This document shows, piece after piece, positions 4,750 to 26,230 of a DNA stretch of 64,000 nucleotides. The stretch spans positions 721,403 through 785,402 of the forward strand of contig BCHH01000005.1 in assembly GCA_001599595.1 (NCBI GenBank), read 5' to 3'. A model generated the notes under the pieces. The model was not told where the DNA came from and made no database searches. It saw only the letters and a list, made by a program, of their open reading frames with translations. Origin of the DNA: Beverwykella pulmonaria. Lineage: Eukaryota > Ascomycota > Dothideomycetes > Pleosporales > Melanommataceae. Every line of letters starts with the position of its first letter. Within the stretch, counting starts at the first letter, position 1. Both the position numbers and the translations under genes were made by a program.

Positions 4750-6534
4750 TTAGTACAGGGGGAGTTTATAAGCATCAAAAGTGTAGTCCCAAGTATTAAA
4801 CGAGGCTTGATCAAAGACACAACTCTGTGTAGTCCCATTATCCGTCCACAACGGGCGTTTTGGCCAGGCACAAATCTGAGCGTTTGCTCCCATATTATCA
4901 CCAGCAAGGTGCGTTGCATTGAGCGTCGAAGGCGTAATTCCATTCTCTACCCAATCGATCATAACAGCAAAATTTGTCTGCGGCCAGGGACCGTTCGGCT
5001 GAGCAGAGTCGGGCCCGCAATGAGCAGCGCCTGGAACGAGATAGAATTGGTACCAGTCCGCGAGCTTAGCGCTAGACTCATTGAGAGAGAGGCCAGGGTA
5101 CATGATCTTGCGGACGGATTCGTGGTAGTGCACGGATGAGCCAGCCGGGATAGAGCTGTCTGATTCGCCATGGAAGTGCAGGATCTTGCCGCCGTTGCTT
5201 TGGATGGTAGTAAGGTCGGGATTAGTGGTTTGTAGGGAGTCAGCGAACTTATACCAGCCCTCAACCATCCAGTCGCGCACAGTGTCGTAAGTTACGTTTG
5301 CCAGGGTTTCGAGGTTGTTCGCATCTAACTCTTCGAGGAAACGGGCGATCCACTCGCCGCCCATGGAATTGATGCTGAGACCCCAAGTTCCAGTGGTATT
5401 GTCATAGGTTGTAGCGGCGTCGGCAAAACCCGCGCTGGGCTGGTAGGAAATATAGGCTCTCTTTCCTTCGCTATCATGAAGACCATCTAGAATAGCTTGT
5501 GCCACTGCGATGCCCTGAGCAGTCACAGTTCCGTTCTGGGCGGGGTTGTTTGACGCACCACCGGGGCCCATCTGTCTCTTGGCCTTGCCCGGGCCTCCGA
5601 AACTGATTCCGGTGGAGGAGCTGGCGGCGCAGTAATAGGCCATTCCAAGGGTGGCATTGATATTGTAGTGAAGTTGGCAGAGATCAGTTCTAGAAACCAC
5701 TCCATCTACTTTCCCATCTAGTGCATCGCAGTTTGAAATGGTCTCGTTAACAATCTTCTCGAACTCACAGGGTGATGGGTAGTAGCTCAGTGTCTGCTCG
5801 ACAACGTTCGAGAAGATGTGATTGACTTGTTGCTGGCCGTATCTGAAAGCGGGTGCACCAGCAATGATGCCGTCATAAATGTCACCGTAGTGCTGAGCCT
5901 GAGACCAACCTCCATGGCCGCCTTCAGAGCACCCTTGATAATACGCATAGAGCTTGTCGCTGCCCATGTCGAAGAAGTTCGTGGTGAAGGCCTTGCCGAT
6001 CGTTGTGCATTCGCCGAGGCCCTTGTAGCCAAACATGTATACCGAATCCCAGTTTACGGATCCATTGGCATCGAGGAACACAGCATCGAAGTTAGTCGAG
6101 AAGCTGCCAAAGCCCCCATCTGTCGCCCCAGTGGCAGCGCCATAGCTGACGCCAGCTCCTCCAGAATTTTGTGAGTTGATAGCGTAGCCTCCTCCTCCTT
6201 GTGTTTGGTAGCGGTTTTTGAAGTTGGCGGGGGCGGGCATCCAGTATTGAACTAGCACTCTGTCATTTTTCCCATTGTGGCTGTAGGCGAAGGTTACGTT
6301 GCAATAGTCATAATTAGAGTCGGGGAACATGTTCTGGCCAGTGGAAGAGGCGTTGTATACGGCATTGGCAGAGACCGATGTTGGATCCACCGTGATTCCA
6401 AAGATAGTGCCATCGGCTGGTAGTGCGGAGGTAACATAGGATGTCGTGCATACGCTGGCAAGTGAAGTCGAGTTGCTGGCAGCAGCCGCTCCGGTAGCAA
6501 CGGTGGCGCCGATTACTAGAGTTGGAGTGCGCAT
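4750..6534 (-). CDS. Secreted tannase / feruloyl esterase family hydrolase
   Basis: A single uninterrupted frame of 594 residues of the tannase family (Pfam PF07519), secreted enzymes that cleave ester bonds of gallotannins or of ferulic acid on plant cell-wall polysaccharides. An Ala-rich signal peptide covers roughly residues 1-19. The catalytic CS-D-HC arrangement is visible: Cys202-Ser203 in GCSEGG, Asp459 in GESDSS and His505-Cys506 in AAHCGPD; the two cysteines normally form a disulfide next to the active site. Several N-glycosylation sequons fit secretion. Length matches fungal family members, and all key residues are present, so it should be active. It lies tail to tail with the broken AA9 gene, suggesting a small plant-biomass locus. 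Substrate cannot be told from sequence; feruloyl esterase B or tannase are both possible. Confidence 0.93.
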   Translation of the reverse strand: MRTPTLVIGATVATGAAAASNSTSLASVCTTSYVTSALPADGTIFGITVDPTSVSANAVYNASSTGQNMFPDSNYDYCNVTFAYSHNGKNDRVLVQYWMPAPANFKNRYQTQGGGGYAINSQNSGGAGVSYGAATGATDGGFGSFSTNFDAVFLDANGSVNWDSVYMFGYKGLGECTTIGKAFTTNFFDMGSDKLYAYYQGCSEGGHGGWSQAQHYGDIYDGIIAGAPAFRYGQQQVNHIFSNVVEQTLSYYPSPCEFEKIVNETISNCDALDGKVDGVVSRTDLCQLHYNINATLGMAYYCAASSSTGISFGGPGKAKRQMGPGGASNNPAQNGTVTAQGIAVAQAILDGLHDSEGKRAYISYQPSAGFADAATTYDNTTGTWGLSINSMGGEWIARFLEELDANNLETLANVTYDTVRDWMVEGWYKFADSLQTTNPDLTTIQSNGGKILHFHGESDSSIPAGSSVHYHESVRKIMYPGLSLNESSAKLADWYQFYLVPGAAHCGPDSAQPNGPWPQTNFAVMIDWVENGITPSTLNATHLAGDNMGANAQICAWPKRPLWTDNGTTQSCVFDQASFNTWDYTFDAYKLPLY

Positions 6535-8890
6535 ATTTGACAGGATAGCAGAAAGTGAATGGATTTTGGATGAAAAATCAGTCCAAGCAGGGATGAGAAA
6601 CCAAGAGCTAGGTGAGCTGGTATGAAGAAGACCGCAAGGGTGGTCTTCCTCTAGTGGGAATCATGCCTCTACATATATGAATTCGTTCGATATACACACC
6701 AGGGATATTCTACGGATATTTCCTGATGTCGTGTATACTGACGCGGCTCCGAGAAGCTGCAGTGTGGCTAGGCCGTGCCATGTCAACCGTTTAGGGTGGA
6801 AATCCCGTCGAATATCGGCAAGAGTCTAGGAAACAAGTGGCTGATGTACAAAACAATGGCACCGCCAAAGATAGATCCAAGTAAACAGGCAGATGAAAGG
6901 TTAATTGAGGGGCAATGACGACGTGCCGAAGCTTCGCCGGGTGAAGTCTTGTTCATCCGTAAGGCTAATTGGTGACGTTGTACGATGGAAACGAAACTAT
7001 TTTCGATGGCCTTAACAGCTAAGTTAAACTTTTCAGCGGTTCCAAGCTTTTCCGGGGGAACCCCTTCCATCCTTGAAAATAATGTTTCATGTTAAAGAGG
7101 TTATTTAATGAGGTAGTTGACGATGGATTCTCTGTTTATTGACGGCCTGCAGATTCTGCCAAAGATGGGTAGACGCCCAACCAAAAATCTGGATGGGTTT
7201 TTTTAAATATAATGTATAACATTATGTTCTAGCTTTTCTTGTTGTTCATCGCTGTATCTCGGGTTTCTGTCCAACAGATATCAAGGTACCGATCCCAAAG
7301 CAGGCCTCAGGGCATTGCGCGAAATTAGGTAACCAGAAATCAGAAGACGGATTGGCTGCGATCGCCCGTTCGTTTAAAGGTGCATCCGATCATCCAAGAG
7401 AGGGGTGGTGGGGACGATCTAGGATTACGTTGTTTGTTGTACGATCCACGCGTCTCAGCCCGCAGGGTTGGGCAGCCTTGGTAGTAGTCAGCCTATAACT
7501 GGCGGAGAAGCGCCGGCATCATGTACGATAAGTATTCGCAACTCGAAGTCATCGTCCTCGAATTTCCACAGTTCTTAATCTGAAGCATTTAGTAAGTTTC
7601 TTCTGTTATTGGGACTGTTTAGACAGTTCATTGTGGCGAATATCATCTAATGAGGGGTTCTCCGGAGTGTTGAGTCTGATTCATTACGCTCGCCAATGCG
7701 TGCTCTGAAATATCGCTACCGTGGGGCGCGCTGTTGGTTTTAATAGTCAGTGAATCGCATCAAGATAATAGCGTCTCTCCATAGTTTTTCCTGTTCAATT
7801 AACGATAGAAGCAGGCTGGCGCGTTCTTCCACGGAGAAAGCCGATCGTGCATTCGTAATTTCGGAAAAGAGAGGAGGTGAAGCCGCCTAGAACCTGCCTC
7901 TTCATGGCGCGTCTTTTGTGCCTACCGCCGCGCAGTTACTGTACTTTCGCCACTGAACCTACGCTATTGGAAGATAGCAAAAAGCTCTTCGTCTCTCATA
8001 ATGAAGGCCCTTCTAGTCCCTATACGGTCATTTGGGAATTGAGTGATGGAAACTGTTGGATAGATGTTGTGAAATGGTCACCGGCGGATTGGTTAATGAA
8101 CTTTTCTTCCTGGGCTTCTTCATTCATTATGATTCCATATTCAAAGAATGTCATTGATCGCGCAATGTAAGCCTTTTCATCAATAGCGACCGCCGAACGC
8201 GATCGCCTTAAAAAGCAAGCACACTTACTTTAGCTCCACGTTCCAAAGATGATGAAATACATTGGTGCAATTGCGCGCAACAACTCCATTCATTTTACGA
8301 TATCGAATGTTTTGTTCTCTCGCCTTTTTAGACCAGTCACAATGGTTCGCAGGCGATGATGGGGACGCCACGCTTCGATTAAGGACTTTGTGGCGCCCTA
8401 AGATTCGGTAATCCTCAAGCACGTGCTTGGTAAAAAGCAAGTCTGGCGCGAATTACTGACAACACGATTCTACTTTGAGGTGAAATGTCACTGCTGCATT
8501 TCGCACGCTTCGAGGTCTAATCCACCTTCCTAGGCCTGGTCCCTCTCGGACGATATTCAAACGAATCGGGCGAAATAAGCGATCATTTTGTAGTCGCTCA
8601 TGAGCCATGATTGGTTCACAAGTCGGAATGGTCGCAAATCTGTGCTTCTGGAAGCCACATCAGGCAAAGATTTTCTGTTTGGCGTTCATTGAGGCTCGTA
8701 TGTGGATGAAATCTGATCAACATGCAGTATGGCGACCCCGAAATGCGATGGTATAAGAGGACGGCCGGTTCGCCGCAACGTATCCATCCACACTCACACA
8801 TTACCCACTACCCACTACCCACTACCCACTGTCCACTATCCACTATCCACTATCCACTACCCTCCCACGTTCAGCAACCAATAATTCAAA
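6535..8890. other. Long gene-free stretch
   Basis: I see no supportable gene over 2.3 kb. Short open frames (for example 7877..8170) lack start context, splice logic or any recognisable family. A TATA-like GGTATAAGAGG at about 8750 and a heptamer repeat at 8801-8862 belong to the promoter of the gene starting at 8891. Confidence 0.5.
8801..8862. repeat. Heptamer microsatellite in a 5' leader
   Basis: About eight imperfect tandem copies of a 7-base unit, ACTACCC shifting to ACTATCC. It lies between the TATA-like box and the start codon of the GPI-protein gene at 8891, so it is probably transcribed as part of the 5' UTR and could vary in copy number between strains. Confidence 0.8.
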
Positions 8891-10121: not shown

Positions 10122-10556
10122 AGTGCGCCGTAGCGAAGAGCTATTTTGCCCGAATCCACCTCTGACAATCGTCGAACGCTTGGATACATGGTGAAAGGAA
10201 GGGTTCTTAGCTCTCATTCAGCTGCTCGCTTCGTCACCATCCAATATAATATATACTTAGCTGGGACCCATCATCGAGGGGGCATCAAACAACGATCCGG
10301 CAACCAACACCTTGCCCCACCAACAATGACCACACGAAGAGGACCCCGAGGGGGGTGACCACAATCATTCTTCTATTTTCTTTTCATAGGTACAACGAAA
10401 TTGCAATAGTCTACTACCAAACCTCATCATCTTCTTTGTGAACGTCACTCGAGACTTTTGATCTTCTTCTTCAGTGCATTGCTACTTCGGACATCGCACG
10501 GCTGCGAGTCACCCTTTACCCTCTGATTTATATATCACCCCTTTACTCTACCCAAG
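10122..10556 (+). repeat. Dispersed repeat, copy A (diverged)
   Basis: Starts at AGTGCGCCGTAGCGAAGAGC and ends near CTTTACTCTACCCAAG. It aligns over its whole length with copy B at 11751..12206. Shared blocks include CCGTAGC-AAGAGCTA, TACAACGAAA-TGCAATAGTCTACT and CTTCGGACATCGCA-GGCTG. Many differences between the copies are C/T or G/A transitions, with a few indels. It looks like a fragment of an old, point-mutated mobile element; I see no terminal repeats or target-site duplication. Confidence 0.75.
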
Positions 10557-11750: not shown

Positions 11751-12206
11751 AGTGCGCCGTAGCAAAGAGCTACTTTGCTCAAATCCACCTCAGGCACGGG
11801 TTGAAGGCTTGGGTGCATGGTGCAGGGAACGGGTCTTGGTTTCTCTGTCAGCTGCTTGTTTCGTCTTCACTCAATACGGTATATATATGGGTACCCGAAC
11901 ACCACGCCCATCGATCATCAATCATCGACACCATGAACTGAGCAATCACCCACCATCGAACCGACCACCGAACACACGACCCCCACCCCAACGAGATTAC
12001 GAACATTTTCTTCTATCTTTCTTCACACATCTCTTTTTCGTTCTTTTGATAGCTAGATACAACGAAACTGCAATAGTCTACTGCCCAACCTCACTTTGAT
12101 CATCCTCTTTTCTCAGTGCATTGCTGCTTCGGACATCGCATGGCTGTGAGTTGCCTTCCACCCTCGTGATTTTCTATATCACACCCTTTTACTCCACCCC
12201 AACAGA
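11751..12206 (+). repeat. Dispersed repeat, copy B (diverged)
   Basis: Partner of copy A at 10122..10556, same orientation, slightly longer through small insertions. For example GCTGCTTCGGACATCGCATG here corresponds to GCTACTTCGGACATCGCACG in copy A, differing only by transitions. Confidence 0.75.
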
Positions 12207-13212: not shown

Positions 13213-13632
13213 AGAATGCGGAGGCAGGCCAGAGAGAGTATGCTAAATGCGAAAAATTAGATCAAAAGATCGCGAGGATCACTAGTTTTCCTTGAAAGAA
13301 GCATATATGACAGCAAATGTGGTAATCGTTTGGATGGTGTCGGCGGGCAATGACACTTTCGTGCGAAGCGCGGGTGTCTGCGATCGAAAAGCCAGTTTGC
13401 ATCTTCGAATGGGCTTGTGCACCACGCTATCCCGTTTGGAATCTCTGGATCTGGAGGCCTCACGCCAGGCTCTTATTAAAGAACGCAGCTTCTTGGTATT
13501 CAATAAACGATTTCTGCTATCAAGAAAAATCTTCAGGTGCTAACAATTGAATATTGAATTCATTAGTCATCTATAGGTAGAATAATTCGGGTTCCGTCTG
13601 CAATCTCGCCTGCTCAATGTTAATCCCTGTAA

Positions 13633-14576
13633 TTAAAGTGGATTGGGTTCACTCTCACCTTCCAGGTAGCTGATGACTTTGGTGTAGTCCTTGCAGACTG
13701 CAAATTGGTCAGCACACTGACCCTCATTATTATAAAGGTTTAATCTCACCATGGTGACCACTCCACCCGCCGTCCTGAGGGCCAAAATCATCCGAGTCCG
13801 CAGGCTCATGGACCTCGACCGCTAGATCTGCCGAGCACATGATCCCTTGTCGGATGTAGTCAACGCAGTGCATGAAATGGAAGTGGTAGTCCGTAGGAAT
13901 GGCTTGCATGTTGTTCGAAACAATCCCAGAGAATATGCGAGCCATCATGTACTATGTGAAAGTTAGGAGATGTCAAGGGGGCGTACTGGGAGAGCTACTT
14001 ACAACGCAATGTAGCTGATGGGTCATAGACGTTGTGGCAAATATTTTGCCGGGACCTGGGAATCCCGTACCAGCTAGACAGAAGTCAGCGAAGTATTCAA
14101 ACAGTGATAAAAAACCTTACCGGGCATAATGGTGTTCCATTTGGCAAGAGTCGCATCCGTGAAAAATTCAGATGAATTCATAGGCACGAATGACATGTCT
14201 GGATCGAACTTCTCAACCTTTGTTGGAACTGCACGTTGTCAAACTCTGTGAACAAATTCAAGTAGAGTGACTTACGCTCTAGGCGCGCTGCCGTGAAGTC
14301 TCCACCAACCTGCCACGATGCCGTTGAAGCTTTGCTCCATGGGTCCCTCCGCAGGAGTACTGTCATAAGCCCAATGATGATGAGTAGTAACGAGGTGTCG
14401 ATCAGCCACCGGTATGATGTGATGGTTGTTATGATTGACTTCCTTCCGGCCTGTTTTTCTGTATAGATAATTTCTGCTGGGTTCCATCCTTTGTTGTCTG
14501 CGATTTGCATATTAGGGTTAGATTTTGTCGGAAGGAGCGATTCCTCGTCGTCCTTGGTAGATACGCTGTGATACAT
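13633..14576 (-). CDS. UstYa-family (DUF3328) oxidase-like membrane protein 1
   Basis: Five exons (14276..14576, 14121..14228, 14003..14073, 13750..13951, 13633..13697), all with GT..AG introns and matching phase, give 248 residues. The N-terminus is cytosolic and acidic; one membrane helix lies at about residues 58-75. The lumenal part carries the two family-defining HxxHC motifs, HQLHC (155-159) and HFMHC (185-189), followed by DYIRQGIMCSAD and a late CKDY. UstYa proteins act in fungal RiPP and related mycotoxin pathways; they catalyse oxidative cyclisation, halogenation or hydroxylation and are thought to bind metal through HxxHC. Both motifs are intact. A second family member lies 1.1 kb upstream on the same strand. 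The substrate is unknown; the family assignment is firm. Confidence 0.92.
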
Positions 14577-15663
14577 TGTTCCGTTTGGTGGTGGCTACTC
14601 CAAAATGATCGATATGGGTAGTAAACGTATGCGAGTTTGGCAGATCGAAGATTTTGTAAAATAATGACGGGGAAGTAAGGAAGAAAAGGAAATATGAGGC
14701 ACGAAATATTCTGGAGGACTACTGTGTTCCCCACGATAGGTGGGATTGTTTCATATACCGCGTTAACCGGAGACCATACGGAGAAAGCTTGCGCGTAGTG
14801 TTTCATCGTCCAACATGTAACATTTTCATCAGACGATCAATCGCTAGACTGCACTCACAGGCCTCTGATACCTCTCGAAACTCCTGAGGCAGCAAGAATT
14901 AGCGGCCGGCATGTCTGTGTCGGCATTCCTTCGATCGGGTGACGACCGTTCAACACCTTGGGTACTTCGGTAGATGCTTAAGTAACAACTAAGATCTAAC
15001 ATGAGTCCAAATTTTTTTCTTTGAAGTGCGAAGAACAGATTCTAGAGGCGATCTAATGATATGGAAATGAGATGGAGATTAGAAAGGTCGGAATGAGAAT
15101 ACCGGTATTAAGGTCGCGACGCGATTGATGTCACGCTAACTGATCTCGGTACACTAGTAATGCCGCACAGACGTTTCTTGTATGGTTCTGAGGCACTCCA
15201 ACTAATGCTGTTAACGGCTCATACGCGTACGCCTTCTTTAGAAGCCACTCCATGTTGCTCCTGAAGCAAGCAAAATTTCACCAAAGTATGCCGCCTAGGT
15301 TGGGGTCAAGAGATTCAATCTCATAAGTGCTGGCATTCTAGCTATTGGTGTTGAGCGGTTCCATGTGACAGTGCGTCGTGGATTAGTAACAACCTTACTC
15401 CTAAGATTTGGAGACTGAAGAAAGCTTTAGGTACAGCATCACATTTTCTGGTTCTTTATCTCCGCATACTCCGCATTTAGGTTTCCACACAGTTTTGTAA
15501 TCGAGAAAAAGCATGATCAATTGTAACCTTGAAAGATACCCTATATTTTCATGCATCAGGCACCACCTTCTTACTTTGCTGCATCGTGATATACAAGTAT
15601 ATGTGCGCAAGTTTTGTACAAATTTGTTCATTTTAGGTCAATTCTCTAGTGGCTGGCCGCGAA
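14577..15663. other. Intergenic region between the two UstYa genes
   Basis: I see no gene in these 1.1 kb. It should hold the promoter of UstYa gene 1 and the 3' end of UstYa gene 2. The open frames seen here have no start context or family resemblance. Confidence 0.5.
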
Positions 15664-16601
15664 TTACTCCTCGAATGGATTTTTATGACCCCATTTGTTG
15701 AAATAGCTTTCCATGACACTCTTATAATGACTTCCTTCTGGACAGAACGCAAACTCCTCGAGAGAGTTCGGCACTCTCCTATACTCGTCTATCATTTTAA
15801 AGCATGCTTGTCTTTTGGGTGCTTGTGTCCAGCTCACTAGCGCATTCCAATCCTTGCACATACGAATCTGACCGTCTCCGATCCTGTGCCTTTCGTTTAT
15901 GGTTGGCATTGGTGTATCGTCAGCGTGGCACATTATATCTTGACGGATAGTGTCTAGACAATGTGCGATATGGCTTGGAGGTATCAACGGCTCGGAGGAT
16001 GGATTGGCAGTAAGTGCTTCAAGATATGCGTGGCGGATATTTTTCTTTCCAACGTCAGCTAAATTAGTCAACGTAATATTAAGGTTTCACTCACGAGACA
16101 ATGAATGTGGTGGAAGGCTTTGATATGAAAAAGGCCTTTGGAATGATCCCAAGGAAAAGGAATTGACGGTTTCAAATTGTGAGAGTTTATGTAGTTTTCG
16201 TCTAAAGCAACCATGATTGGACTGGAATCAAGAGATTCCCACAACGGGTCCGATATTGATCGGTTCGCGTGGAGGAAGTCAGTGTACACTTGATAAGGGG
16301 AGGGTTTGTCGTAGCCGAGATTTGCTACAAGGTAATTAATATTAGCTTTCCGAGTAGGAACAATTGGAGTTATCTTACTGAACTCTGATGTACAAGAAGT
16401 ACGTTGGTTGGATAAGATGCGTATAGTTTTGAGAAAGGCAGCATTGAGGATGAGGGAAACAATCAGAAGACAAACGGCAACGATCAACACGGGTGAAATA
16501 TTCTTGTTGTCTGTGGGAAAATTGCGATTAGCTTTGAGCTTTTCGTCCAGCTCTTCATTTTTGTATACAAGAGGTTGTTTCTCTAAATTTTCAATGTCCA
16601 T
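15664..16601 (-). CDS. UstYa-family (DUF3328) oxidase-like membrane protein 2
   Basis: Three exons (16379..16601, 16095..16324, 15664..16044) give 277 residues. The second intron uses the AAAG acceptor just before AAAAAT, the only choice that keeps the family frame. There is one membrane helix at about residues 36-57 after a charged N-terminus. The two HxxHC motifs are HHIHC (146-150) and HIAHC (176-180), followed by LDTIRQDIMCHADD and MCKDWNALVSW, which match the second motif region and the C-terminal signature of UstYa. Pairs of UstYa proteins often work together (UstYa/UstYb in ustiloxin), so gene 1 and gene 2 may act on the same substrate. It is divergent from the small secreted peptide gene at 17403, with ~800 bp between them. 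Confidence 0.92.
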
Positions 16602-17402
16602 TTTGCTTTGACAGAATGTTTCTCCCGTCCAAATCGAGAAACTCGCTCATACACTCAGAAAACGCAGGAATGAGAGGAAATCGTAGTCAATATGTTTCGT
16701 CCTACATTATTTAGTATATTTCGGACTCCGATGGCATGTGCGTGCAGTCGCACAGAGCGATGTTTGATGGTGCATGACCCCGCTCTCCAACTTTGGGGCC
16801 AAATTCATAATTACTTACGTATAGGCAACAGGAGAACGTCGGCGTTCTTCGAGTGTGGCGTAGTGCAGATCAAGCACACCGTTGCGCTAATGCATGCGCT
16901 GTGTTTCTGGATCATCCGCTATATTGTACCCAAAGGGAGTCCAACTCAAGATGGCAAGATGAGACGGCTAAAATTCATGTCATGCGCCCTTCCGGGCATT
17001 CAACGTGTATCTAGAATCTTTATCGAACAATATCAAATGTTGGACTCAGTGTTGGGTTGGCCTATTATATGCCATGCTCGATGACCCCAAATGTTATATT
17101 TGAAAGAAAGATTCAATATCTCTCAGTGGGCGACATGAAGTTTCATTTTATTGGCCTTCTAAAATTCAGCACTGCATGGCCGTACTACATTAAAAGGCCA
17201 AGTTGTCCAGCAGTCCCCAAGAACGCTACTAGACCTTCCCATCCTCAGCCGACTTTTCCAACTCCCAAGTCCCTCACCAGAGATTCTTCGAACGACCGAA
17301 TCCAATAAACAACTTCCCCACAAGACAGTTCATCCGAAAGAGTGAGGGCCTATTAACCAAAGCAAGAAATTGAACTGAGTATATTGTAGATCCACGACCA
17401 CT

Positions 17403-17642
17403 ATGAAACTTACATTTGTTCTGGGGCTTAGCGCAGTGCTGTTTGGACAACTTAGTCTCAGCGCTCCAATGCAAATTTCGGGCAGCCGTTTCGCTCCTTT
17501 CGCGCAGCGTTATGAAGTTGAATCAGGTCAAAGAGCGAACGTTCAGTTGGAGAACCCAACGATTCTAAACGAAAGGGATGTACTCGCCGCTCCAGATGAA
17601 GAAATAGAGCAGTTGGGGGATCCGGCAGTTCTAAATTCATGA
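17403..17642 (+). CDS. Small secreted peptide, candidate RiPP precursor
   Basis: One exon of 79 codons. Residues 1-20 form a clear signal peptide (MKLTFVLGLSAVLFGQLSLS, cleavage after SLS-A or SAP). The mature part of about 58 residues is acidic, has no cysteine and contains a single tyrosine at residue 37 in the segment QR-YEVESG-QR, so that one Tyr lies between two Gln-Arg pairs. No KR/RR Kex2 sites and no core repeats are present, unlike classical UstA-type precursors. It stands between two UstYa genes on one side and a 7TM and an MFS gene on the other. That position, not its sequence, is the reason to consider a RiPP precursor; a small effector-like secreted protein is the main alternative. 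Downstream splicing could not be excluded. Confidence 0.6.
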   Translation: MKLTFVLGLSAVLFGQLSLSAPMQISGSRFAPFAQRYEVESGQRANVQLENPTILNERDVLAAPDEEIEQLGDPAVLNS

Positions 17643-18204
17643 GTGTAATTGAGTCTTAGAGACTTTATCGGAGTAAATGCGTCCGCTACGCCCCCCATCT
17701 GCTTCAATCATTATCAGTGAACATAAGGAATGCGAACTCCGTTTGCCTTTTACAAGAATCCAACGCGTTATTACCCGTGATGCTTAAAGTCCGACAATTT
17801 ATTTTGCGTGCTGCATCAGCCAATCAACTGCCAGATGCGATCTTCAAGTGAATTTGTATTCGCATTCTTGTGGGAACTTCAGCATGTTTGACCGATTTTC
17901 GTGTCACTTATCAACGTCAAACTACACATGCGATCTCTATCTTGCCTATCGTGAGCCTCGATATCAAAATCCAACACCAATCTATTCCTCGTTTTTGGTA
18001 CTCACCTACCTGCATGAAGTGGGATGCGCATTCCGCGTTCCTTGCTCGAGGACAAATACATGCTCCAAATGTTTTGTGTCATGTTGGGAGCATAGGTACT
18101 AAATTACCATAGGCTTTCTCGGGATATGAAAAGCCTAGCGTGTCTCTTTTGTTTTTTCTCGTTATTCTCGAACTTCTCTTCTTTTGACCAAAATTCTTGG
18201 AACG

Positions 18205-19603
18205 ATGTCACAATCTGTGGTACCCCCCTCACCAGGTGCAACCATAGCCGCTGGCACTGTCTTTCCCACAGTTTGTGCTATCCTGGTGGCCGCTCGATTC
18301 CACGCAAAGAGACATCTTGGATCTGCATTGTTGGTTGACGATTGGCTGACACTTCCGGCTCTGGCAAGTGTGCAATACCACATTTTCGATGATTGTGACT
18401 GACTTGAGTAGCTATGTACTACTGGGATGGGGATTGCTCTTGTTGTTGGTGAGTTAATACATAAAAACTCATCCCATTCTGCCAAGTCTGATTTATGTTC
18501 CAGGTGTTGTGTACGAAGGGCTTGGATACCCAACTCCACAACCATCTGACCCAAGGTCAAGCTCAAACTTCATTTCGGCCCAGACGGTCATCACTCGAAA
18601 GGTAGATAGCCCAGAGACTCTAGCTACAGCATCATAACACTTAATATTCAGGTCGAAATCTCTATGGAACTTCTTCAATTTCCTGCCTTGACTTGTACGA
18701 AACTGAGTCTGTTATTCTTCTACCGTCGAGTATTCTGCTCACCATGGAGGGTCTTCCTCAGAGTAATGTTCACAGTACTGATTACTCTTTGTATTATCTG
18801 GGGACTGGGATTCTTCTTCTCCATGACGATCATTTGTGGAACCCATTTCTCCGCGTACTGGTCTTCAATAAGAGAATTGCGGACCCATTGTCCTAATCTG
18901 CATATGCAACAAACGTGGCTTGCTATAAGCGACTCCGCGATTGACATAATCATTTTTATAATCCCGATTCCATTGGTACGTGCGAACTGGTTGGATATTT
19001 GACGTCAACTAAAAGGTTCATAGGTATTTCGGCTACAAATGACCATCAGTCGGAAACTTGCAATACTAGTCGTTTTCCTTTTCGCAGCAGTGTAAGTTAT
19101 TGCCATGTATTCCGAAGAAACACACTGAATTGTCCAAGAACTGTAGCGGCGTCAATCACGAGAATGGCAATCTGGTTGATAGCCATCAAAACTCTGAAGA
19201 AAAGCTACGCGATAGGGATATATGATAACGGTAAGATCCTAGCACCATACCTAGCGCAGAAGATAACACCAAAGTAGAAACTGTCACTGCTGGTTTATAT
19301 TGGACAATGTTCGAGACTGGCCTTGGCCTCATCGTCGCCACTCTTCCAAGTCTTTACGTCCTTGTTCGAGCAATGTGTAAACCATGTTGGAAGGACAAAT
19401 CGGGATTCAAACAACCCAACATTATCATCAACACCGACACCGACACCAGCTTAGCCGATCCAATGGGATCATTTATGGATGCCATTTCTAGTTTCCAAAG
19501 TCAAAGCCACATAGTCCATACAAGTGATCCCGAGAAGACACCGGAGGAACTACCAGGAAGGACTTTGCCCCCTTTCACGATTGATGCGGCTATGATCGGA
19601 TGA
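18205..19603 (+). CDS. Fungal 7TM (rhodopsin-like domain) membrane protein
   Basis: Seven exons (18205..18363, 18412..18448, 18504..18601, 18652..18975, 19024..19091, 19139..19230, 19275..19603) give 368 residues with about seven hydrophobic helices. The pattern matches the large ascomycete family of rhodopsin-domain (PTH11-related) integral membrane proteins: an early DDWLTLPALL, a central LTCTKLSLLFFYRRVF, a helix containing DSAIDIIIFIIPIPLV, then RKLAILVVFLFAAV and ASITRMAIW. The cytosolic tail is polar. The first intron begins with GC rather than GT (CTG then GCAAGT), the only choice that keeps the frame. Such proteins are often found in metabolite clusters and may sense ligands. It is co-oriented with the peptide gene upstream and the MFS gene downstream. 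Confidence 0.85.
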
Positions 19604-20362
19604 AACAAACGAACGAATGAGATAGATTATGATGATATTAAAACATGGTAGACTGTTGGAAGTGGCACAGAATAAACAGCTTCATCATTTCTACGTCCGT
19701 AACAGCTGCAGCTCAACTACAAGCGGCGCAGCACAGCTATAATCAACCTTTAGCCTTCTTTTCCTTGCTTGTGCCACAGGCACCCCGGGAAGAGATTTTC
19801 AGCCCGGCTCATGACTCTGCCCACTTGAATTAGCCGTGACGTCCGTGCCACGAACGACTTGTTCAAGAAAGACCCCAAAAAGTTGATGCCAAGCCCCCGA
19901 GCTGACTGCAGCACACAACCCAGCAAATGCTAGACACTATCGGCATTAAGACTTAAGCACTGAAAATGTGACTTGATATATTGAATTCAGTTGCATTCTC
20001 TTGCTTCTGCTTAGGTTTGCAAGCATTACGCACGCATGTTTGAGAAGCATGCACGCGTCCCTCGGACTTTTAATCTAACAATTCACGATAACAGCAGTTC
20101 CAAATCGTCGAAAGGGCATCAAGTCGTTATCAATACATGTTAATATGTCTTTGATTGACGTATGCAGTTGGATTTAGTGACAGGGAGGCGTAGCTACCCG
20201 CTATGGTGGCACCGTACAGTAATCTTCACAGGAACTATCACGTGTGTGAGCATCGATTTGTGTAACAGGAACGACTGTCTCATCAGTGTTGTAAGAGACG
20301 TTCCTTCCCTCGACACGTCAATCATTTATATCTCTTGAAATTCCTTCTTCTATATCTCCAGA
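19604..20362. other. Intergenic region, promoter side of the MFS gene
   Basis: I see no gene in these 760 bases. A CACGTG E-box-like site lies near 20240, within an AACTATCACGTGTGTG context, upstream of the MFS start at 20363. Confidence 0.45.
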
Positions 20363-22051
20363 ATGACTGTGAACTCTGCTCTTAAGAGGGACGAAATCGT
20401 ACTTTTTGAGAAAGAGTCTTTCCGCGAGTATGAGAACAGTGTCAGCAGCGCTTCTATCAACAGCACAGTCGATTTTGAGGGTGGAGATGACCTAGAAGAT
20501 CCATACAACTGGTCTCCGTTGTACAAATGGACTTTGGTGATTTTGATCTCGTTGCTCAGCTTGGTCGTGTGAGTTCCTGGATGAGCTCAGTTCTTCGGCG
20601 TACTTACTTAATCCAGGAATCTCTCCATCTTGATGTGTGCTCCAGCAACATCGCAGATTCTCGAACAGCTTCATTCTACGAATAAGCTACATGCCACCAT
20701 TCTCGTATCTATATGGGAGTTGGGCGAAGTTGTAGGCCCGTTTCTCCTGGCACCTCTGTCGGAAGTATATGGCAGACTTCCGGTTTTCCACAGGTCTGTG
20801 TCATGTTCTCGCTGCTCAACAATACTCATTATTAATTCAGTTTCAACATAATGTTCATTCTCTTCGCCGTGGGTGCAGCAATGAGCAAGAACATAGAAAC
20901 GCTCATAACAATGCGCTTCTTCCTGGGGCTTTCCGTTGCATCCACAATACTCAACCCTTGCATCGTCGGTGACATGTTTAAAGAAGAAGAGCGAGGCAGA
21001 GCTCTAGGAATAATGGGCATGATACCCTTCATTGCACCAGTTCTCGGCCCCACAGTCGGTGGTCTAGTCTCGCATGCCAAGGGGTGGAGGTGGACATTCT
21101 GGCTGATCGTCATTATTGCGTCTCCCCTTCAGTTATTGTTCTCCATCATCTACCGCGAGAGCTACCGGGTCAGGATCTTAGATCGCAAGGTTAAGATGCT
21201 ACGGAAGCGAACAGGAAACCTTTTCCTTCGCTCACGATACGAGTCTGATAAGCGACCCATACTCATTATCAAGGACGCCGTATTTAGGCCCATCTTACTA
21301 CTTCTTAGGTCGCGGGCTGTGCTTTTAGTTGGGCTCTGCAGCGCCTTGAATATGAGCCTTGTATATGTTGTCATCACATCGCTAGGCACGATCTACGATG
21401 AGCGATATCACATTCGGAAAGATTTGCTTGGCCTCACGTACCTCGGACTCGGTGCATAGTTTCCCCTTTAACAATCGAATATGAAGCTTACTTATATCTA
21501 GGTTTCGGTATGATCTTCGGTGTCCAGCTCTGCGGCCAGTTCCTCGACAGATATCTCCAACGCAAAATCAAAGCCGGCGATGGAAAGCCAGAGCACCGAT
21601 TGCCACCAATGATTCTCGGAAGCATTCTTGTGCCACTTGGACTTCTAGCCTTCGGGTGGACAGTGCAGACAAACACACACTGGGTTGTCCCGATTGTGGT
21701 TTCTACCTTCATTGGATTCGGTTTCGTGGCAAATTCCATCTCAGCATGGAGCTATCTTGTTGATGCTTTTGGTATATACTCTGCCTCTGCCACAGCAGGC
21801 AATATCGTTCTGAGAAATGCTGCATCAGCAGCATTGCCGTTGGCTGGTCCTGCACTGAGTGGAAAGCTTGGATATGGATGGGCGTATACTGTCCTCGCAT
21901 TGATTGGACTTCTTGCAGTACCGATTTCATTGGTTCTGTGGTATTTGGGAGAAAGGATTCGAATTAAAGGTAAGCTTTACTATATTAAGTAGCGGTGAAC
22001 TGTGACACTCACTCCATAGATTCGATCGGTCGAACCACTCAAGACAAATGA
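20363..22051 (+). CDS. MFS (DHA1-type) drug or metabolite exporter
   Basis: Five exons (20363..20568, 20617..20793, 20841..21451, 21502..21969, 22020..22051) give 497 residues. An acidic N-terminus with DPYNWS, the usual fungal DHA1 lead-in, is followed by 12 predicted helices. Family marks are PLSEVYGRLPVF after helix 2, the RFFLGLSVAS helix, and the motif-C-like PFIAPVLGPTVGG (helix 5), which is typical of exporters. The middle loop is basic. The last, 11-codon exon is reached by a good GTAAGC donor; without that splice the protein would simply end at 21992. As the exporter beside two UstYa genes and a secreted peptide it may move the product or protect the cell; this is inference from position. 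Confidence 0.88.
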
Positions 22052-22910
22052 CGACGAGAGCGAAACTCTATTCATAGATAAGAACATTGATCTCTTCGTT
22101 CAGGAGAAAAATTGCGTTCCATCTTTGATATCTCACTTGGGATATCAATTGTGTTACAGTATGGTCATGTAATATTTTCATTCGCGGTTATGAACATAAT
22201 TTTTTCTCCAGAATATTAAGGCATATAGTAACCCACAATCCTTGATCTCGTTAAAGTTTAAGTTTTGTCTGACTCAACGTACGTAAATCCACCCTCATCC
22301 AGCCCGCGCCTGCACCCAGAAGAGCCCCGCCCACTCCTCTTTACCAATCTAACCAACACATCCTTGAATCTCTACCTCCTCACCCACTCGTAATCTGAAA
22401 GAGCGCCTGCGTTTCATCAAAACATAAAAAAGTCATATCGCTAAGAGCAACACACTCGGTGCCGTACTATGGCACTTGAATCTCCTCCTTCCAAACTGCA
22501 CAATTTTCAATGCTGTTGTATTCGCCGCTTTGACGGTGGCTCAGGTGGTTCGCATAACCGGCTCCCTTAAAACATCAATTTCTGGGTCAATGTTGTTGTG
22601 TCGGTATACCCGCCCGTGAAATGGGAAGGTATCTTGGACGCTGTTAATCGACTGCCCGTGGGTTTCGCGGAACGCTAATCCACGGCCGTGCAAGAGCGCA
22701 GGTACGGTAGAAAGAGTATAGATTGCTTGTGACCACGAATCTCCTACGTAGCAAGGGCTAGCAGCGACGTCGAAGTCAACTACTAGCTTGCCAGTTGTAG
22801 GTTTAGATTCTCGGGTTCGTCCCCCTTCTAAATTGTCGGGGCCGTATATTTAGGCCTGTGCGGATCTCGCTCGCTTAATCCACACAGTCCCCCTTCTGAG
22901 TCATTGTTAT
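22052..22910. other. Intergenic region with a possible signal-peptide relic
   Basis: No complete gene is seen. At about 22500-22600 (plus strand) a start-less frame reads like a signal peptide (FNAVVFAALTVAQV) but soon meets stops; it may be a decayed secreted-protein gene. Confidence 0.35.
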
Positions 22911-23060
22911 CTACAGTGCAACCCACCGTAATACCAACATGTTGACTGTAATGAGTATGTTGATCTGTAAAAAATTGGCCACCCTCGTGTTTGACGAGTT
23001 CGCGCGATGCGCGATGCGGATAGTCATGAGAGTAAGAATGAGAAAGCTGAAGTACTTCAT
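22911..23060 (-). CDS. Very small secreted-like ORF, uncertain
   Basis: 49 codons beginning MKYFSFLILTLMTIRIAHRA, which looks like a signal peptide, followed by a short hydrophobic tail. An in-frame upstream extension to 23162 exists but reads as leader sequence (Ser/Pro-rich, low complexity). It lies inside the UstYa region. With no repeat, no cysteine pattern and no known relative, this may be chance. Confidence 0.2.
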   Translation of the reverse strand: MKYFSFLILTLMTIRIAHRANSSNTRVANFLQINILITVNMLVLRWVAL

Positions 23061-23342
23061 CTTGGGTGGACTCGAATTGGAGGTGTGCGGAGAGGTAATT
23101 AGAGAGGAGAATGTATGGTGGGAGAAATAAAATGGGGTCGAGACAGGGACGAAGAGAGGCAATTGTGGGGCTTCAGTAGTCTCATTGTTGTGGGTGCGGG
23201 AGTGATAACGAAGAAGAACAAGCCCGGAAATGCTGATTGTAGATTGTTTTAAGAACGGAGAGAAGAAAATATTTGAAGAGTTATCGGAAAACTTTAGAAA
23301 ATGCTGCGAATATTACCTCGATCATCGTCTCAGTCCCACCAT

Positions 23343-24506
23343 TTAGGTATCCTCGTCTTGGACCTTTACAACATTCTTCCCCTGCGCATGCCCACCCAAT
23401 ATCATCTTATAAGCCTGCCACAAGTTAGCCGTCTTACTGTCCCCATTCTCACCCTCTCCTTACCAATCACTTACCTCCATCGCTTCCCCCATGTCCACCA
23501 CGGTCCCCACATGCACCTTCAACCTTCCCTCCTCTACCATTCTCCCTAAATTCTCCAAAGCTTCTAAGTTTGCAATCCCAGTAATTTGGACATACTCTCT
23601 CGGCACACCGCCGAGAAAACGGGGCCATAGCATATTCTTCGCCATGAGACCAATCGTCGCAAGTAAACCGCTATACGTGTAGCTCTTAGCTCTCGGGCCA
23701 ATCGAGACGAAAGGTTTTCCTTCTGCAAGGAAAGATGGGCAATCATTAAACAAATCCTGTATCCCGACAGCATCGATGACCGCACTGAACCTTGACCCTC
23801 CGAATCTGTCTGCCAAGTCGGCGTACACGAAGCCATGTACTTTGTAGTCGATGACCTACTTTGGTTAACTCTGCTTATCAACAGCAAGCAATGAAACACT
23901 CACTTCATCAACCCCAAGTTCACTAACCCACTCTACATTCCCCGTCGAACACACAGCGACTACCTGCCCGCTCTCTCCCACCTCATCCCGGCACATCTGC
24001 AGCACCAGGTGACCGATCCCTCCACTCGCCCCATTGACCAGTACACTATCCCCCTTCTTCAGCTTCGCATGCTGGATCAATTCCAGCGCCGACGCGCCCG
24101 CGATCCCCAGACCCGCTGCACTTTCCAGGGTTATTGCGTTTGGCTTCCTCATCACTGATGTATGTTCAACGACTACGTACTCCGCCAACGCGCCGGATGT
24201 ACATTTAACATGTTGACCCACGGGAATACTGCCAAAGACCTTCGTCCTAGACTCGAGGTTTCTCTCTATAGGAACTTCGGTGCCGCACTCAACGACAGTG
24301 CCGGAGAAGTCCATTTCTGGGATCGCGGGTGAGGCGCGGAAGAGGAAGGGAAGGAGTTGCATGACTATGCTCGCGCCGGGGTTGAGGGCACAATATGTGA
24401 CGCGGATTAGGACTTGGGTTGGTGATGTGAGAGTTGGGATGGGAACATTTGAGAGGCTGAGGACGGATGAGGGGGGGCCACGACTCTTGTGTGTCCATGC
24501 TTGCAT
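23343..24506 (-). CDS. MDR-family NAD(P)H-dependent oxidoreductase (quinone reductase-like)
   Basis: Three exons (23904..24506, 23475..23855, 23343..23414), all phase 0, give 351 residues, the normal length of zinc-independent medium-chain reductases. The N-terminal GroES-like half contains YCALNPGASIVMQ and PEMDFSGTVVECG. The Rossmann half has the nucleotide-binding NGASGGIGH (158-166) and IDAVG. Cysteine/histidine zinc ligands of alcohol dehydrogenases are absent, so it should act as a quinone or enone reductase using NADPH in the cytosol. In polyketide clusters such enzymes serve as trans-acting enoyl reductases, but no PKS is visible here. It faces the MFS gene tail to tail and is a plausible but unproven member of the UstYa cluster. 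Confidence 0.9.
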
Positions 24507-25179
24507 GTTTTTGATTATTGTGATGGAGATGCGAGGACGAAATGTGCTAAACGAGATGAAAGAAACGGAGAGCTCAAGTGTTTCAAATTGTTAATAAGAG
24601 GGACCGAAGAAGGGAAGGCCACGTTGATAAATCAAAACATGAGGAAGCAAGACAATACCTGCGCTTGTGATGCAGTTGCGGCTGAAGATACGATGCACCA
24701 CATAAATGTTTCTGGACTAGCGCAGCCGTTAAGTAATCCGCTGTGAATTTTCCCTTTCAGAAATGAAAGGCGTTGAAATGCCTTCTTGGTTCGGATTTTT
24801 GGTGCCAGTGGCTGCTCAGGCGGCCTCAGACTGACTTACAAAATATCCAAAGAAACTACGGGACCTAATGACAGGTCTTCAATTACACTGCGTGGAGACT
24901 TAGTCAAATACGAGAGTGGTGGCATGCCAAGCCTAGGCGTCGACACATAGTCCGTCATGGCCCACCTACAAGCTCTTCTATATTGTAATGTGTCTTGCTT
25001 GTCGCGGTAAATGTGGGAAAGACAAGCAACAAGACAAAAAAAAAATTATGAATCGGCGATCTTCTTGAGCGTCCGCGCCATTCCGCAAGCCGATTCTAAA
25101 GTACGAAGCCCCTACTTCGTAACAGTCTCCCAGCGTGAAAGGCCGAAGCGAAATAACGGCACTTCTGCACACCAAGCCA

Positions 25180-26230
25180 CTATCGGTTCAATACATCGAC
25201 AAAGAGGGAACGGGTGACAACTAACGCTTCCAATACGATAAGGGTATACACTTCGAGCGTTTGCCAGTATAGAGACCAGGTGTATGCATATCCCATGTAG
25301 CCATTCGTCACACTAACGCGAAGCGCCGCCATCCCGACATGCGCCACGAAAAGACAAAGCGCTGTAAGGAAGGTTGATTTGGACAGAGGTGGCGTTGTTG
25401 AAGAAGTACACGCAAGGATGGCGATACTAAGGACTAATGGAAGTTCAGCACAAGTCGGGCTTAGGACGCACCAGACGTACTCAGGATATCCGACAAAATG
25501 TCCAGTTGACCAGAGGTCGAGTTGAGAAAAAGATTGTGCGGCTCGTTATCTTGATTCATCGGAAAAGTCGTTAGGCACTCCACTAGGGACAGTTAGCAGG
25601 CTGACCTCCGTTCACGGTCTTAGCACTCACGAGCTTCCCCGTCCATGTGCGGACACGCACTAGCCATGTACAAGCTCTGATATATCCAGCAGATAACCGT
25701 GAACCCAGTAACTCCCCAGAAGTAGGACTTAAAATTCCGCGACAGACGGGAGACGAGGCCATAGAGAGCCGAAAGACACGCCAATTTAATCGCGAAGATA
25801 GAAGACCACAAGATTGGGATAAGAAACTGGGTCCACCCTACCAGTCCCACAAGCGACTCCATTTCATCGGGCTTCAGCGATATGCGGCGTCGGTTGGCGG
25901 CTTCCATGAGATACATCGTGGGTAGCTTGTAGTAGAGCATTGCCGTCCCGAAAAATGCACCATGTGCGGCAAGGAGGGCCAGGTAATCTGCTGTGGCTAG
26001 TCGCTTGCGAGGAGCACCTCGAGTCCGGAAACGAGATATGACGGAAAGTAAGGTAATACAGAAGAAAAGACCAAGAGAATACTGGGGAGCTATTTAGCAC
26101 AAAGCGAATGAGCGCGAAATTGCTGGCTCACCTGGAAGACGGCCTTTGGTAATATTCCGGCATGATCGATTTTCGCCCGCCTTGCAGGGTCTCGGGAAGA
26201 AGTCGGTAAAGGGTTCAACATATCAGCCAT
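25180..26230 (-). CDS. Fungal 7TM (rhodopsin-like domain) membrane protein, second copy
   Basis: Four exons (26132..26230, 25631..26081, 25481..25582, 25180..25433) give 301 residues with about seven hydrophobic segments. Exon 3 ends in the family hallmark LDILSDIL, and removing the 47-nt intron that follows (GTACGT..CATTAG) restores the frame into ILSIAIL and then AALRVSVTNGY and WSLYWQTLEVYTLIVLEALVV, which match the last helices of fungal rhodopsin-domain proteins. The start ATG at 26230 was chosen because the first intron then joins in phase; an upstream in-frame ATG exists. The protein is shorter than the 7TM protein at 18205 and has almost no C-terminal tail. Function is unknown; these proteins may act as surface receptors. 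Confidence 0.8.

What the first reader, a model, noticed from the sequence alone, without database searches (positions are those of the whole stretch)
13633..26230. Possible undescribed UstYa-centred cluster without a tyrosinase
Two intact UstYa-family genes, both with paired HxxHC motifs, lie next to a 79-residue secreted peptide, two 7TM proteins, an MFS exporter and an MDR reductase, all within ~12.6 kb. UstYa pairs are the hallmark of fungal RiPP (dikaritin) clusters such as ustiloxin, where a secreted precursor is cut and cyclised. Here the tyrosinase, peptidase and methyltransferase often seen are absent, and the precursor would be non-repetitive. The combination may mark a new type of modified peptide, or a UstYa role outside RiPPs. 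The cluster limits (LTR to the left, F-box gene to the right) are inference.
Basis: partly seen in the sequence, partly recalled or inferred. Interest (0 to 1): 0.82.

Follow-up and report, generated by a model that had tools for sequence, protein, structure and literature searches.

The report
Fungal UstYa–peptide–receptor gene locus
A filamentous fungus carries two intact genes for peptide-modifying UstYa enzymes next to a small secreted-type peptide gene and a receptor-like gene, an arrangement that recurs elsewhere in its genome and suggests, without proving it, that the fungus makes and perhaps senses a modified peptide.

Summary
Both UstYa genes are intact, each with two HxxHC motifs. 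A 79-aa secreted-type peptide, an MFS transporter, an ADH/quinone-reductase-like enzyme, one clear 7TM (Fung_rhodopsin, class XIV Pth11-like) and one weak 7TM lie within 12.7 kb. The missing tyrosinase is not new (asperipin-2a; lichen Clan R2), and a single-core precursor has been suspected before.

The same genome adds two things. The best paralogue of UstYa2 sits beside a tyrosinase and a repeat precursor. The order [UstYa ←][→ small secreted-peptide candidate][→ Pth11-like 7TM] is seen in 5 of 6 divergent intervals read, window included. A listed 7TM gene lies within 10 kb of 9 of 31 UstYa loci (about 2 expected).

Best reading: a dikaritin-like RiPP locus with a single-core precursor and a linked orphan receptor-like 7TM.

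Against it: the two UstYa genes are not co-conserved in other species. The peptide has no homologue found, no repeat and no dibasic Kex2 site; its coding signal is inconclusive. The 7TM genes form no clade and are also enriched near P450s. MFS, reductase and second 7TM belong by proximity only. Boldest open reading: the peptide is the 7TM's ligand.

The parts
13563..14576 (-). UstYa gene 1 (255 aa, 6 exons; HQLHC and HFMHC motifs)
15664..16601 (-). UstYa gene 2 (295 aa, 2 exons; HHIHC and HIAHC motifs)
   Evidence: PF11807 90.4 bits; 75% to a Zopfia rhizophila protein; best own-genome paralogue C20:14.0-14.7 kb
17403..17642 (+). 79-aa secreted-type peptide, candidate precursor; no repeats, no dibasic site, one Tyr
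   Evidence: single ORF; signal-peptide-like start; the only hit of the stricter precursor-start motif in the 64-kb window; no homologue or paralogue found; codon score inconclusive
18205..19603 (+). 7TM protein 1, fungal rhodopsin domain (class XIV, Pth11-like)
   Evidence: PF20684 113.4 bits; several relatives lie beside other UstYa genes
20363..22051 (+). MFS transporter, multidrug-efflux-like (3' end uncertain)
   Evidence: PF07690 132.5 bits; weak Bcr/CflA-type efflux match 98.6 bits, below its cut-off; role in cluster inferred from proximity only
23343..24506 (-). MDR/ADH-type reductase (quinone-reductase-like)
   Evidence: PF13602, PF00107, PF08240; NCBIfam matches all below cut-off; membership by proximity only
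25180..26230 (-). 7TM protein 2, divergent fungal rhodopsin-like
   Evidence: PF20684 19.4 bits, below cut-off; membership by proximity only

Best explanation
This is a dikaritin-like (UstYa-type) RiPP locus of a Pleosporales-like fungus (order inferred from the nearest named homologues). The likely core is UstYa2, the 79-aa peptide and 7TM1, with UstYa1 possibly a second oxidase. The peptide enters the secretory pathway (inferred from its signal-peptide-like start). Membrane-anchored UstYa enzymes oxidise or cross-link a single core in it; the Arg-flanked, aromatic middle segment with its one Tyr is the best guess. A protease trims it without a dibasic Kex2 site, and the MFS and reductase may export or finish it. 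The linked Pth11-like 7TM may sense the product. Shown: gene identities and order, paralogy to loci with Kex2-repeat precursors, recurrence of the arrangement in this genome. Inferred: that the peptide is the substrate, the chemistry, the processing, and every function of MFS, reductase and 7TMs.
For: UstYa2's best own-genome paralogue (C20:14.0-14.7 kb) lies beside a repeat precursor and a tyrosinase. A UstYa1 paralogue (C2:704.5-705.2 kb, third by best exon score) lies beside a five-repeat precursor. The order UstYa(←) / secreted-peptide candidate(→) / 7TM(→) is seen at the window, C4:148.5-153.5 kb (repeat precursor), C12:320.5-325 kb, C2:4722-4727 kb and C10:1207-1211 kb, 5 of 6 divergent intervals read; C20:79 kb shows none, and a seventh divergent pair (C3:341-347 kb) was not fetched. 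In the six intervals (about 10.9 kb by my estimate) the motif scan has 4 hits against 0.11 expected. A listed 7TM gene lies within 10 kb of 9 of 31 UstYa loci (window's own 7TMs not in the printed list), expected 2.0, 0 of 1000 permutations; 9 of 30 without the window, 1 of 1000. Nearest PKS match about 145 kb away, no tyrosinase match on C5. Short non-repeat candidates occur beside UstYa at C2:4724.9 kb (42 aa) and C3:4547.7 kb (45 aa, tyrosinase nearby).
Against: No homologue of the peptide was found (the search needs three shared 5-residue words) and no paralogue. It has no repeat, no dibasic site and no intron, unlike several other candidates. Codon score is inconclusive: in-frame 0.022, other forward frames −0.059 and −0.100, but one reverse frame 0.123; 12.7% of 884 overlapping stop-free intergenic stretches score as high. 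The UstYa1 and UstYa2 species sets barely overlap. The precursor-start motif was designed after candidates had been seen. Second exons at C10 and C12 are unresolved. Two of the ten motif hits look like chance and a third (C11:636.6 kb) is uncertain. 7TM genes are also enriched near P450s, 16 of 91 against 5.5 expected, and UstYa-linked ones were not recovered as a clade.
Confidence: 0.5

Rival explanations
1. The two UstYa genes are real oxidases, but the 79-aa ORF is an unrelated small secreted protein or a chance ORF. The true substrate is encoded elsewhere, or UstYa acts on a non-ribosomal or other small molecule.
For: Peptide without a homologue found and without repeats or dibasic sites. 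In the KEP survey 2,991 of 9,399 DUF3328 genes (31.8%) lay near a repeat precursor (PMC7329392 section 7). UstYa-family proteins also act in the cyclochlorotine cluster (PMC12048977, passage; that this product is non-ribosomal is recalled). Codon score inconclusive.
Against: It is the only hit of the stricter precursor-start motif in 64 kb and lies in the 1.6-kb gap between UstYa2 and 7TM1 (0.016 hits expected there; motif framed post hoc). Same order at other loci. No PKS/NRPS match within 140 kb of the cluster.
Confidence: 0.33
2. The 12.7-kb stretch is not one cluster: UstYa1, MFS, reductase and second 7TM are independent neighbours, and only UstYa2-peptide-7TM1 (or nothing) is a unit.
For: UstYa1 and UstYa2 relatives occur in almost non-overlapping species. 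The best-scoring MFS paralogues are not within 10 kb of a UstYa match (nearest noticed, C15:835 kb, 15 kb away; 86 of 168 candidates scored). 7TM2 is only a weak family match.
Against: UstYa1 and UstYa2 are adjacent, same strand, about 1.1 kb apart; UstYa genes occur as pairs or groups at several loci. [quoted passage not shown]
Confidence: 0.3
3. The UstYa-7TM linkage only reflects the general crowding of Pth11-like receptor genes in secondary-metabolism regions and has no specific meaning.
For: 7TM near P450: 16 of 91, ratio 2.9. 4.2% of Pth11-like GPCRs lie in BGCs, most often near PKS and NRPS-like genes (PMC12842992, section 3.4 read). 7TM genes beside UstYa were not recovered as a clade. 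A KS match lies 2-3 kb from the C4 7TM.
Against: Ratio 4.4 for UstYa against 2.9 for P450 and 1.0 for HET genes. 7 of 12 UstYa-7TM neighbours are divergent, against 25% expected (P = 0.014; orientations tabulated by hand), and 5 of the 6 such intervals read hold a peptide candidate.
Confidence: 0.4

Closest known systems
Asperipin-2a cluster (Aspergillus flavus; dikaritin)
   Same: ustY gene, secreted precursor, multidrug transporter and reductase; cited as a cluster without tyrosinase or peptidase (PMC12048977 passages)
   Different: One ustY gene and a repeat precursor with Kex2 sites there (PMC7329392 passages); here two UstYa genes, a non-repeat peptide without dibasic sites, and 7TM genes. 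The reductase families were not compared.
Lichen Clan R2 (and R1) RiPP clusters, Parmeliaceae
   Same: UstY homologue with double HxxHC; secreted-peptide candidates in some clusters without conserved repeats; authors suggest a possible single core; R2 lacks the usual modifying enzymes (PMC12048977 passages)
   Different: R2 has one ustY gene and GNAT genes, no transporter or reductase; no 7TM named in the passages seen
Ustiloxin and phomopsin clusters
   Same: Several UstYa-family oxidases near a secreted precursor
   Different: Tyrosinase and repeat precursor with Kex2 sites; neither found at this locus
Kex2-processed repeat proteins (KEPs) with DUF3328 genes
   Same: Secreted precursor close to DUF3328 genes
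   Different: KEPs are defined by tandem repeats and Kex2 sites; absent here

Membership tests
Dikaritin (UstYa-type RiPP) | DUF3328/UstYa protein with two HxxHC motifs | tested here: met
   PF11807 over cut-off in both; motifs read from the models
Dikaritin (UstYa-type RiPP) | Precursor with N-terminal signal peptide | tested here: met
   Home-made signal-peptide rules; SignalP was not available
Dikaritin (UstYa-type RiPP) | Repeated core sequences separated by Kex2 sites (older definition, Ding et al., as quoted in PMC12048977) | tested here: not met
   No repeat in the 79-aa peptide (scan of the window; TRF of 13-30 kb) and no KR/RR/KK/RK by reading
Dikaritin (UstYa-type RiPP) | Tyrosinase, methyltransferase and peptidase or transporter in the cluster (older definition; later relaxed) | tested here: not met
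   Transporter present. No tyrosinase match on C5. No methyltransferase or peptidase among the 29 window ORFs scanned except a sub-cut-off methyltransferase match about 30 kb away; peptidases were not searched specifically
Dikaritin (UstYa-type RiPP) | Product derived from the precursor peptide | not testable with these tools
   Needs gene deletion and LC-MS/MS
KEP (Kex2-processed repeat protein) | Tandem repeats with Kex2 sites | tested here: not met
   As above
Asperipin-2a-type cluster | ustY + precursor + transporter + reductase | tested here: inconclusive
   All four kinds of gene are near, but joint function and the same reductase family were not shown
Class XIV Pth11-like GPCR (7TM1) | Fungal rhodopsin domain PF20684 | tested here: met
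   113.4 bits, cut-off 27; class assignment from PMC13308352 Table 1 (passage)
Class XIV Pth11-like GPCR (7TM2) | Fungal rhodopsin domain PF20684 | tested here: inconclusive
   19.4 bits, below cut-off
NRPS/PKS pathway with a UstYa tailoring enzyme | NRPS or PKS core gene nearby | tested here: not met
   No PF00668 or PF00109 match within 140 kb of the cluster on C5; nearest about 145 kb

The most novel reading that the evidence does not exclude
The locus is one of a set of UstYa-peptide-7TM triads in which a single-core or few-core modified secreted peptide is the cognate ligand of the neighbouring Pth11-like GPCR: a self-sensing RiPP signalling module that would give ligands to a large class of orphan fungal receptors.
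Probability: 0.12. Interest if true: 0.87.

Novelty: new variant of a known kind. Interest (0 to 1): 0.55.

Why it matters
Pth11-like receptors are a very large fungal GPCR class; most fungal GPCRs are orphans and the ligands of several well-studied Pth11-like receptors are unknown (PMC13308352, abstract and passages). Dikaritins are known chiefly as cyclic peptides of unclear role to the producer. If UstYa-modified peptides are routinely encoded between their oxidase and a Pth11-like receptor, genomes themselves name ligand-receptor pairs to test. It would also show that RiPP mining that insists on repeats or a tyrosinase misses loci such as this one. I found no report of a UstYa/DUF3328-Pth11 (PF20684) linkage in the open-access library: one search gave one paper, whose UstYa match is an author name; one search gave none; only the 15 listed papers each of 108 and 1,116 were seen. 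Subscription papers and preprints were not searched.

Tried and rejected
LTR boundary: only short direct repeats. UstYa fold: the UstYa2-family model was poor (mean pLDDT 53.7); the UstYa1-family model was fair (70.6) but no PDB fold matched at E <= 0.001, and no PDB sequence matched P0002, a UstYa2 homologue, at E <= 1; no active-site geometry was examined. Peptide homologues: none found. The three protein searches went to the peptide, UstYa2 and UstYa1, so co-occurrence of 7TM1 or MFS in other species was not tested, and I had no DNA of a fungal relative. A single UstYa-linked 7TM clade was considered and not recovered (12 genes, fragmentary alignment, weak supports). C2:4832 kb, holding one of 7TM1's closest relatives, has a P450-like reading frame (by eye, motif recalled) and no UstYa match. 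The codon-usage test was uninformative. A notebook line calling C2:704.5 kb the closest UstYa1 paralogue is superseded. Permutations assumed approximate contig lengths for contigs not fetched; the 7TM, P450 and HET lists were incomplete (150 of 294, 92 of 342 and 150 of 301 candidates scored). Adding C12:321 kb and C2:4722 kb gives 12 of 31 loci with the window, but that union was not permuted. One of the 31 UstYa loci (C9:1333 kb) is below the family cut-off.
Full report
WHAT IS THERE. The window is C5:721403-785402 of a 45.6-Mb, 31-contig fungal assembly. The nearest named homologues of UstYa2 are Pleosporales and other Dothideomycetes (order assignments are my knowledge), so a Pleosporales-like host is inferred. 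UstYa1 (−, 14576..13563) and UstYa2 (−, 16601..15664) are intact, both over the PF11807 cut-off, both with two HxxHC motifs. The 79-aa peptide (+, 17403..17642), 7TM1 (+, 18205..19603, PF20684 113.4 bits), MFS (+, 20363..22051), ADH/quinone-reductase-like enzyme (−, 24506..23343) and a weak second 7TM (−, 26230..25180, 19.4 bits) follow. An F-box gene lies to the right. The LTR at the left was not confirmed. The nearest PKS ketosynthase match on C5 is about 145 kb from the cluster, the nearest NRPS condensation match over 500 kb, and contig C5 has no tyrosinase match. Of 20 further ORFs of the window scanned against Pfam, none suggests a rival core pathway.

IS THE ABSENT TYROSINASE NEW? No. 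In the KEP survey (PMC7329392, section 7 read in full) 1,758 of 7,878 precursors had DUF3328 genes nearby, and only 341 tyrosinase genes were counted among the 15 closest genes of all 7,878. Asperipin-2a works with one ustY gene, a transporter and a reductase. A 2025 lichen study reports UstY clusters without the usual modifying enzymes whose secreted candidates lack repeats, and mentions a single core as one possibility (PMC12048977, passages).

PARALOGUES IN THE SAME GENOME. PF11807 gave 58 exon matches, which I grouped into 31 loci within 12 kb (one locus below the family cut-off). The best paralogue of UstYa2, C20:14.0-14.7 kb, sits beside a secreted precursor with Kex2-type repeats and a tyrosinase. 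For UstYa1 the closest paralogues by best exon score are C5:1500.7 kb (47%), C2:1953.7 kb (45%) and C2:704.5-705.2 kb (39%/38%). The third lies beside a five-repeat precursor; the surroundings of the first two were not fetched. I fetched 4.5 kb or more around 14 of the other 30 loci. Repeat precursors were seen in 4 of the 14: three by a repeat scan, one by eye.

THE RECURRING ORDER. Between a UstYa gene and a divergent PF20684 gene there is a small secreted-peptide candidate on the 7TM strand at the window, at C4:148.5-153.5 kb (repeat precursor), C2:4722-4727 kb (42 aa, non-repeat, one 49-bp intron), C12:320.5-325 kb and C10:1207-1211 kb (first exon only; the remainder uncertain). The sixth interval read, C20:79 kb, has none; a seventh divergent pair, C3:341-347 kb, was not fetched. 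A motif for signal peptide plus x-P-[LVIMA] gave 10 hits in 278.5 kb of fetched DNA and window, against a mean of 2.7 per 269 kb in three first-order Markov sequences. The window has exactly one hit, the 79-aa peptide; 0.016 would be expected in its interval and 0.11 in all six intervals, where 4 were seen. Two further hits are the repeat precursors on C20 and C2, one is the C3 candidate below, one (C11:636.6 kb) is uncertain, and two look like chance. The motif was framed after several candidates had been seen, so these figures are descriptive. A 45-aa non-repeat candidate lies beside a tyrosinase and a UstYa locus at C3:4547.7 kb (non-consensus donor, hand model).

7TM LINKAGE. Nine of 31 UstYa loci have a listed PF20684 gene within 10 kb (expected 2.0, 0 of 1000 permutations; 9 of 30 without the window, 1 of 1000; 6 of 31 within 5 kb, expected 1.1). 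The window's own 7TM genes were not in the printed list. Controls: UstYa near P450 3 of 31 (1.2 expected), UstYa near HET 4 of 31 (2.1), P450 near 7TM 16 of 91 (5.5), HET near 7TM 8 of 149 (8.3). So 7TM genes crowd near metabolic genes in general, and near UstYa somewhat more so. With two further 7TM relatives and the window, 12 of 31 loci have one; 7 of these 12 pairs are divergent (tabulated by hand; binomial P = 0.014). Against a single duplicated unit: in a fragmentary 12-gene comparison with weak supports, UstYa-linked and unlinked 7TM genes intermingle, and C2:4832 kb, holding one of 7TM1's closest relatives, has a P450-like frame by eye and no UstYa match.

CO-CONSERVATION. UstYa1 has relatives at 78-79% in Melanomma, Pleomassaria and Amniculicola, among 76 hits. 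UstYa2 has relatives at 75% in Zopfia and 60% in Polyplosphaeria, among 15 hits. The only named species in both lists is Lophiostoma macrostomum (37% and 50%; longest contigs 139,384 and 321,399 bases). The pair is therefore not co-inherited as far as this database shows; 5 of the 15 UstYa2 hits and 16 of the 76 UstYa1 hits carry no species name, and each hit stands for a 90%-identity cluster. The peptide has no homologue found, although that search needs three shared 5-residue words and would miss a fast-evolving precursor.

HOW IT PROBABLY WORKS. Secretory entry of the peptide, oxidation by membrane-anchored UstYa enzymes, trimming, and export. DUF3328 proteins of ustiloxin, asperipin-2a and phomopsin are considered to form ether bonds on the Tyr ring (PMC7329392, passage); UstYa homologues of phomopsin also desaturate residues (PMC10512285, passage). 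The single Tyr between Arg residues in the middle of the 79-aa protein is my guess for the core. All of this is inference from family knowledge; the sequence shows only the parts and their order. PF20684 marks class XIV Pth11-like receptors; ligands of several studied ones are unknown (PMC13308352, passages). 327 Pth11-like GPCRs (4.2%) are reported within biosynthetic clusters, most often near PKS and NRPS-like genes (PMC12842992, section 3.4 read). A putative T. reesei RiPP cluster lists a PTH11-type GPCR among its genes (PMC7099791, passage). Self-perception of Kex2-repeat peptides by unknown GPCRs has been speculated on before (PMC6339444, passage). A specific UstYa-peptide-Pth11 arrangement was not found (listings; the one hit of 42 checked).

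VERDICT. A credible, incomplete RiPP-like locus; tyrosinase absence ordinary; the single-core precursor and the linked 7TM are the interesting parts. New variant of a known kind.

Noticed in passing
G000:C20:10.5-16.0 kb (L023): Clear dikaritin-type cluster: tyrosinase, Kex2-repeat precursor with ADY-type cores, UstYa, and a convergent PF20684 7TM gene within about 6 kb.
   Followed up: partly
G000:C2:698.8-705.2 kb (L029, L030): Three UstYa matches around a five-repeat secreted precursor of unusually long repeat unit.
   Followed up: partly
L033 around 5694 (−), C3:4547.7 kb: Possible 45-aa non-repeat precursor with two Tyr near its C-terminus beside a tyrosinase and a UstYa gene; intron donor is non-consensus.
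   Followed up: partly
G000:C4:148.5-156.3 kb (L042 and beyond): UstYa, repeat precursor with FF cores and a Pth11-like 7TM lie 2-3 kb from a PKS ketosynthase match, so two pathway types may adjoin.
   Followed up: no
G000, whole genome: 31 UstYa loci in one genome, one of them below the family cut-off; several are pairs or groups.
   Followed up: partly
window 10387-10523 and 12054-12165: Two direct-repeat pairs about 1.65 kb apart (85-90% identical), possibly remnants of a mobile element; no LTR shown.
   Followed up: no
window 18364-18411: First intron of 7TM1 fits a GC-AG intron in the hand-made gene model.
   Followed up: no
window 4753-6660 (−): Tannase/feruloyl esterase gene, 366.8 bits.
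   Followed up: no
G000:C29:21.0-57.5 kb: Two condensation-domain matches within an open frame of 12,878 codons, a very large NRPS.
   Followed up: no
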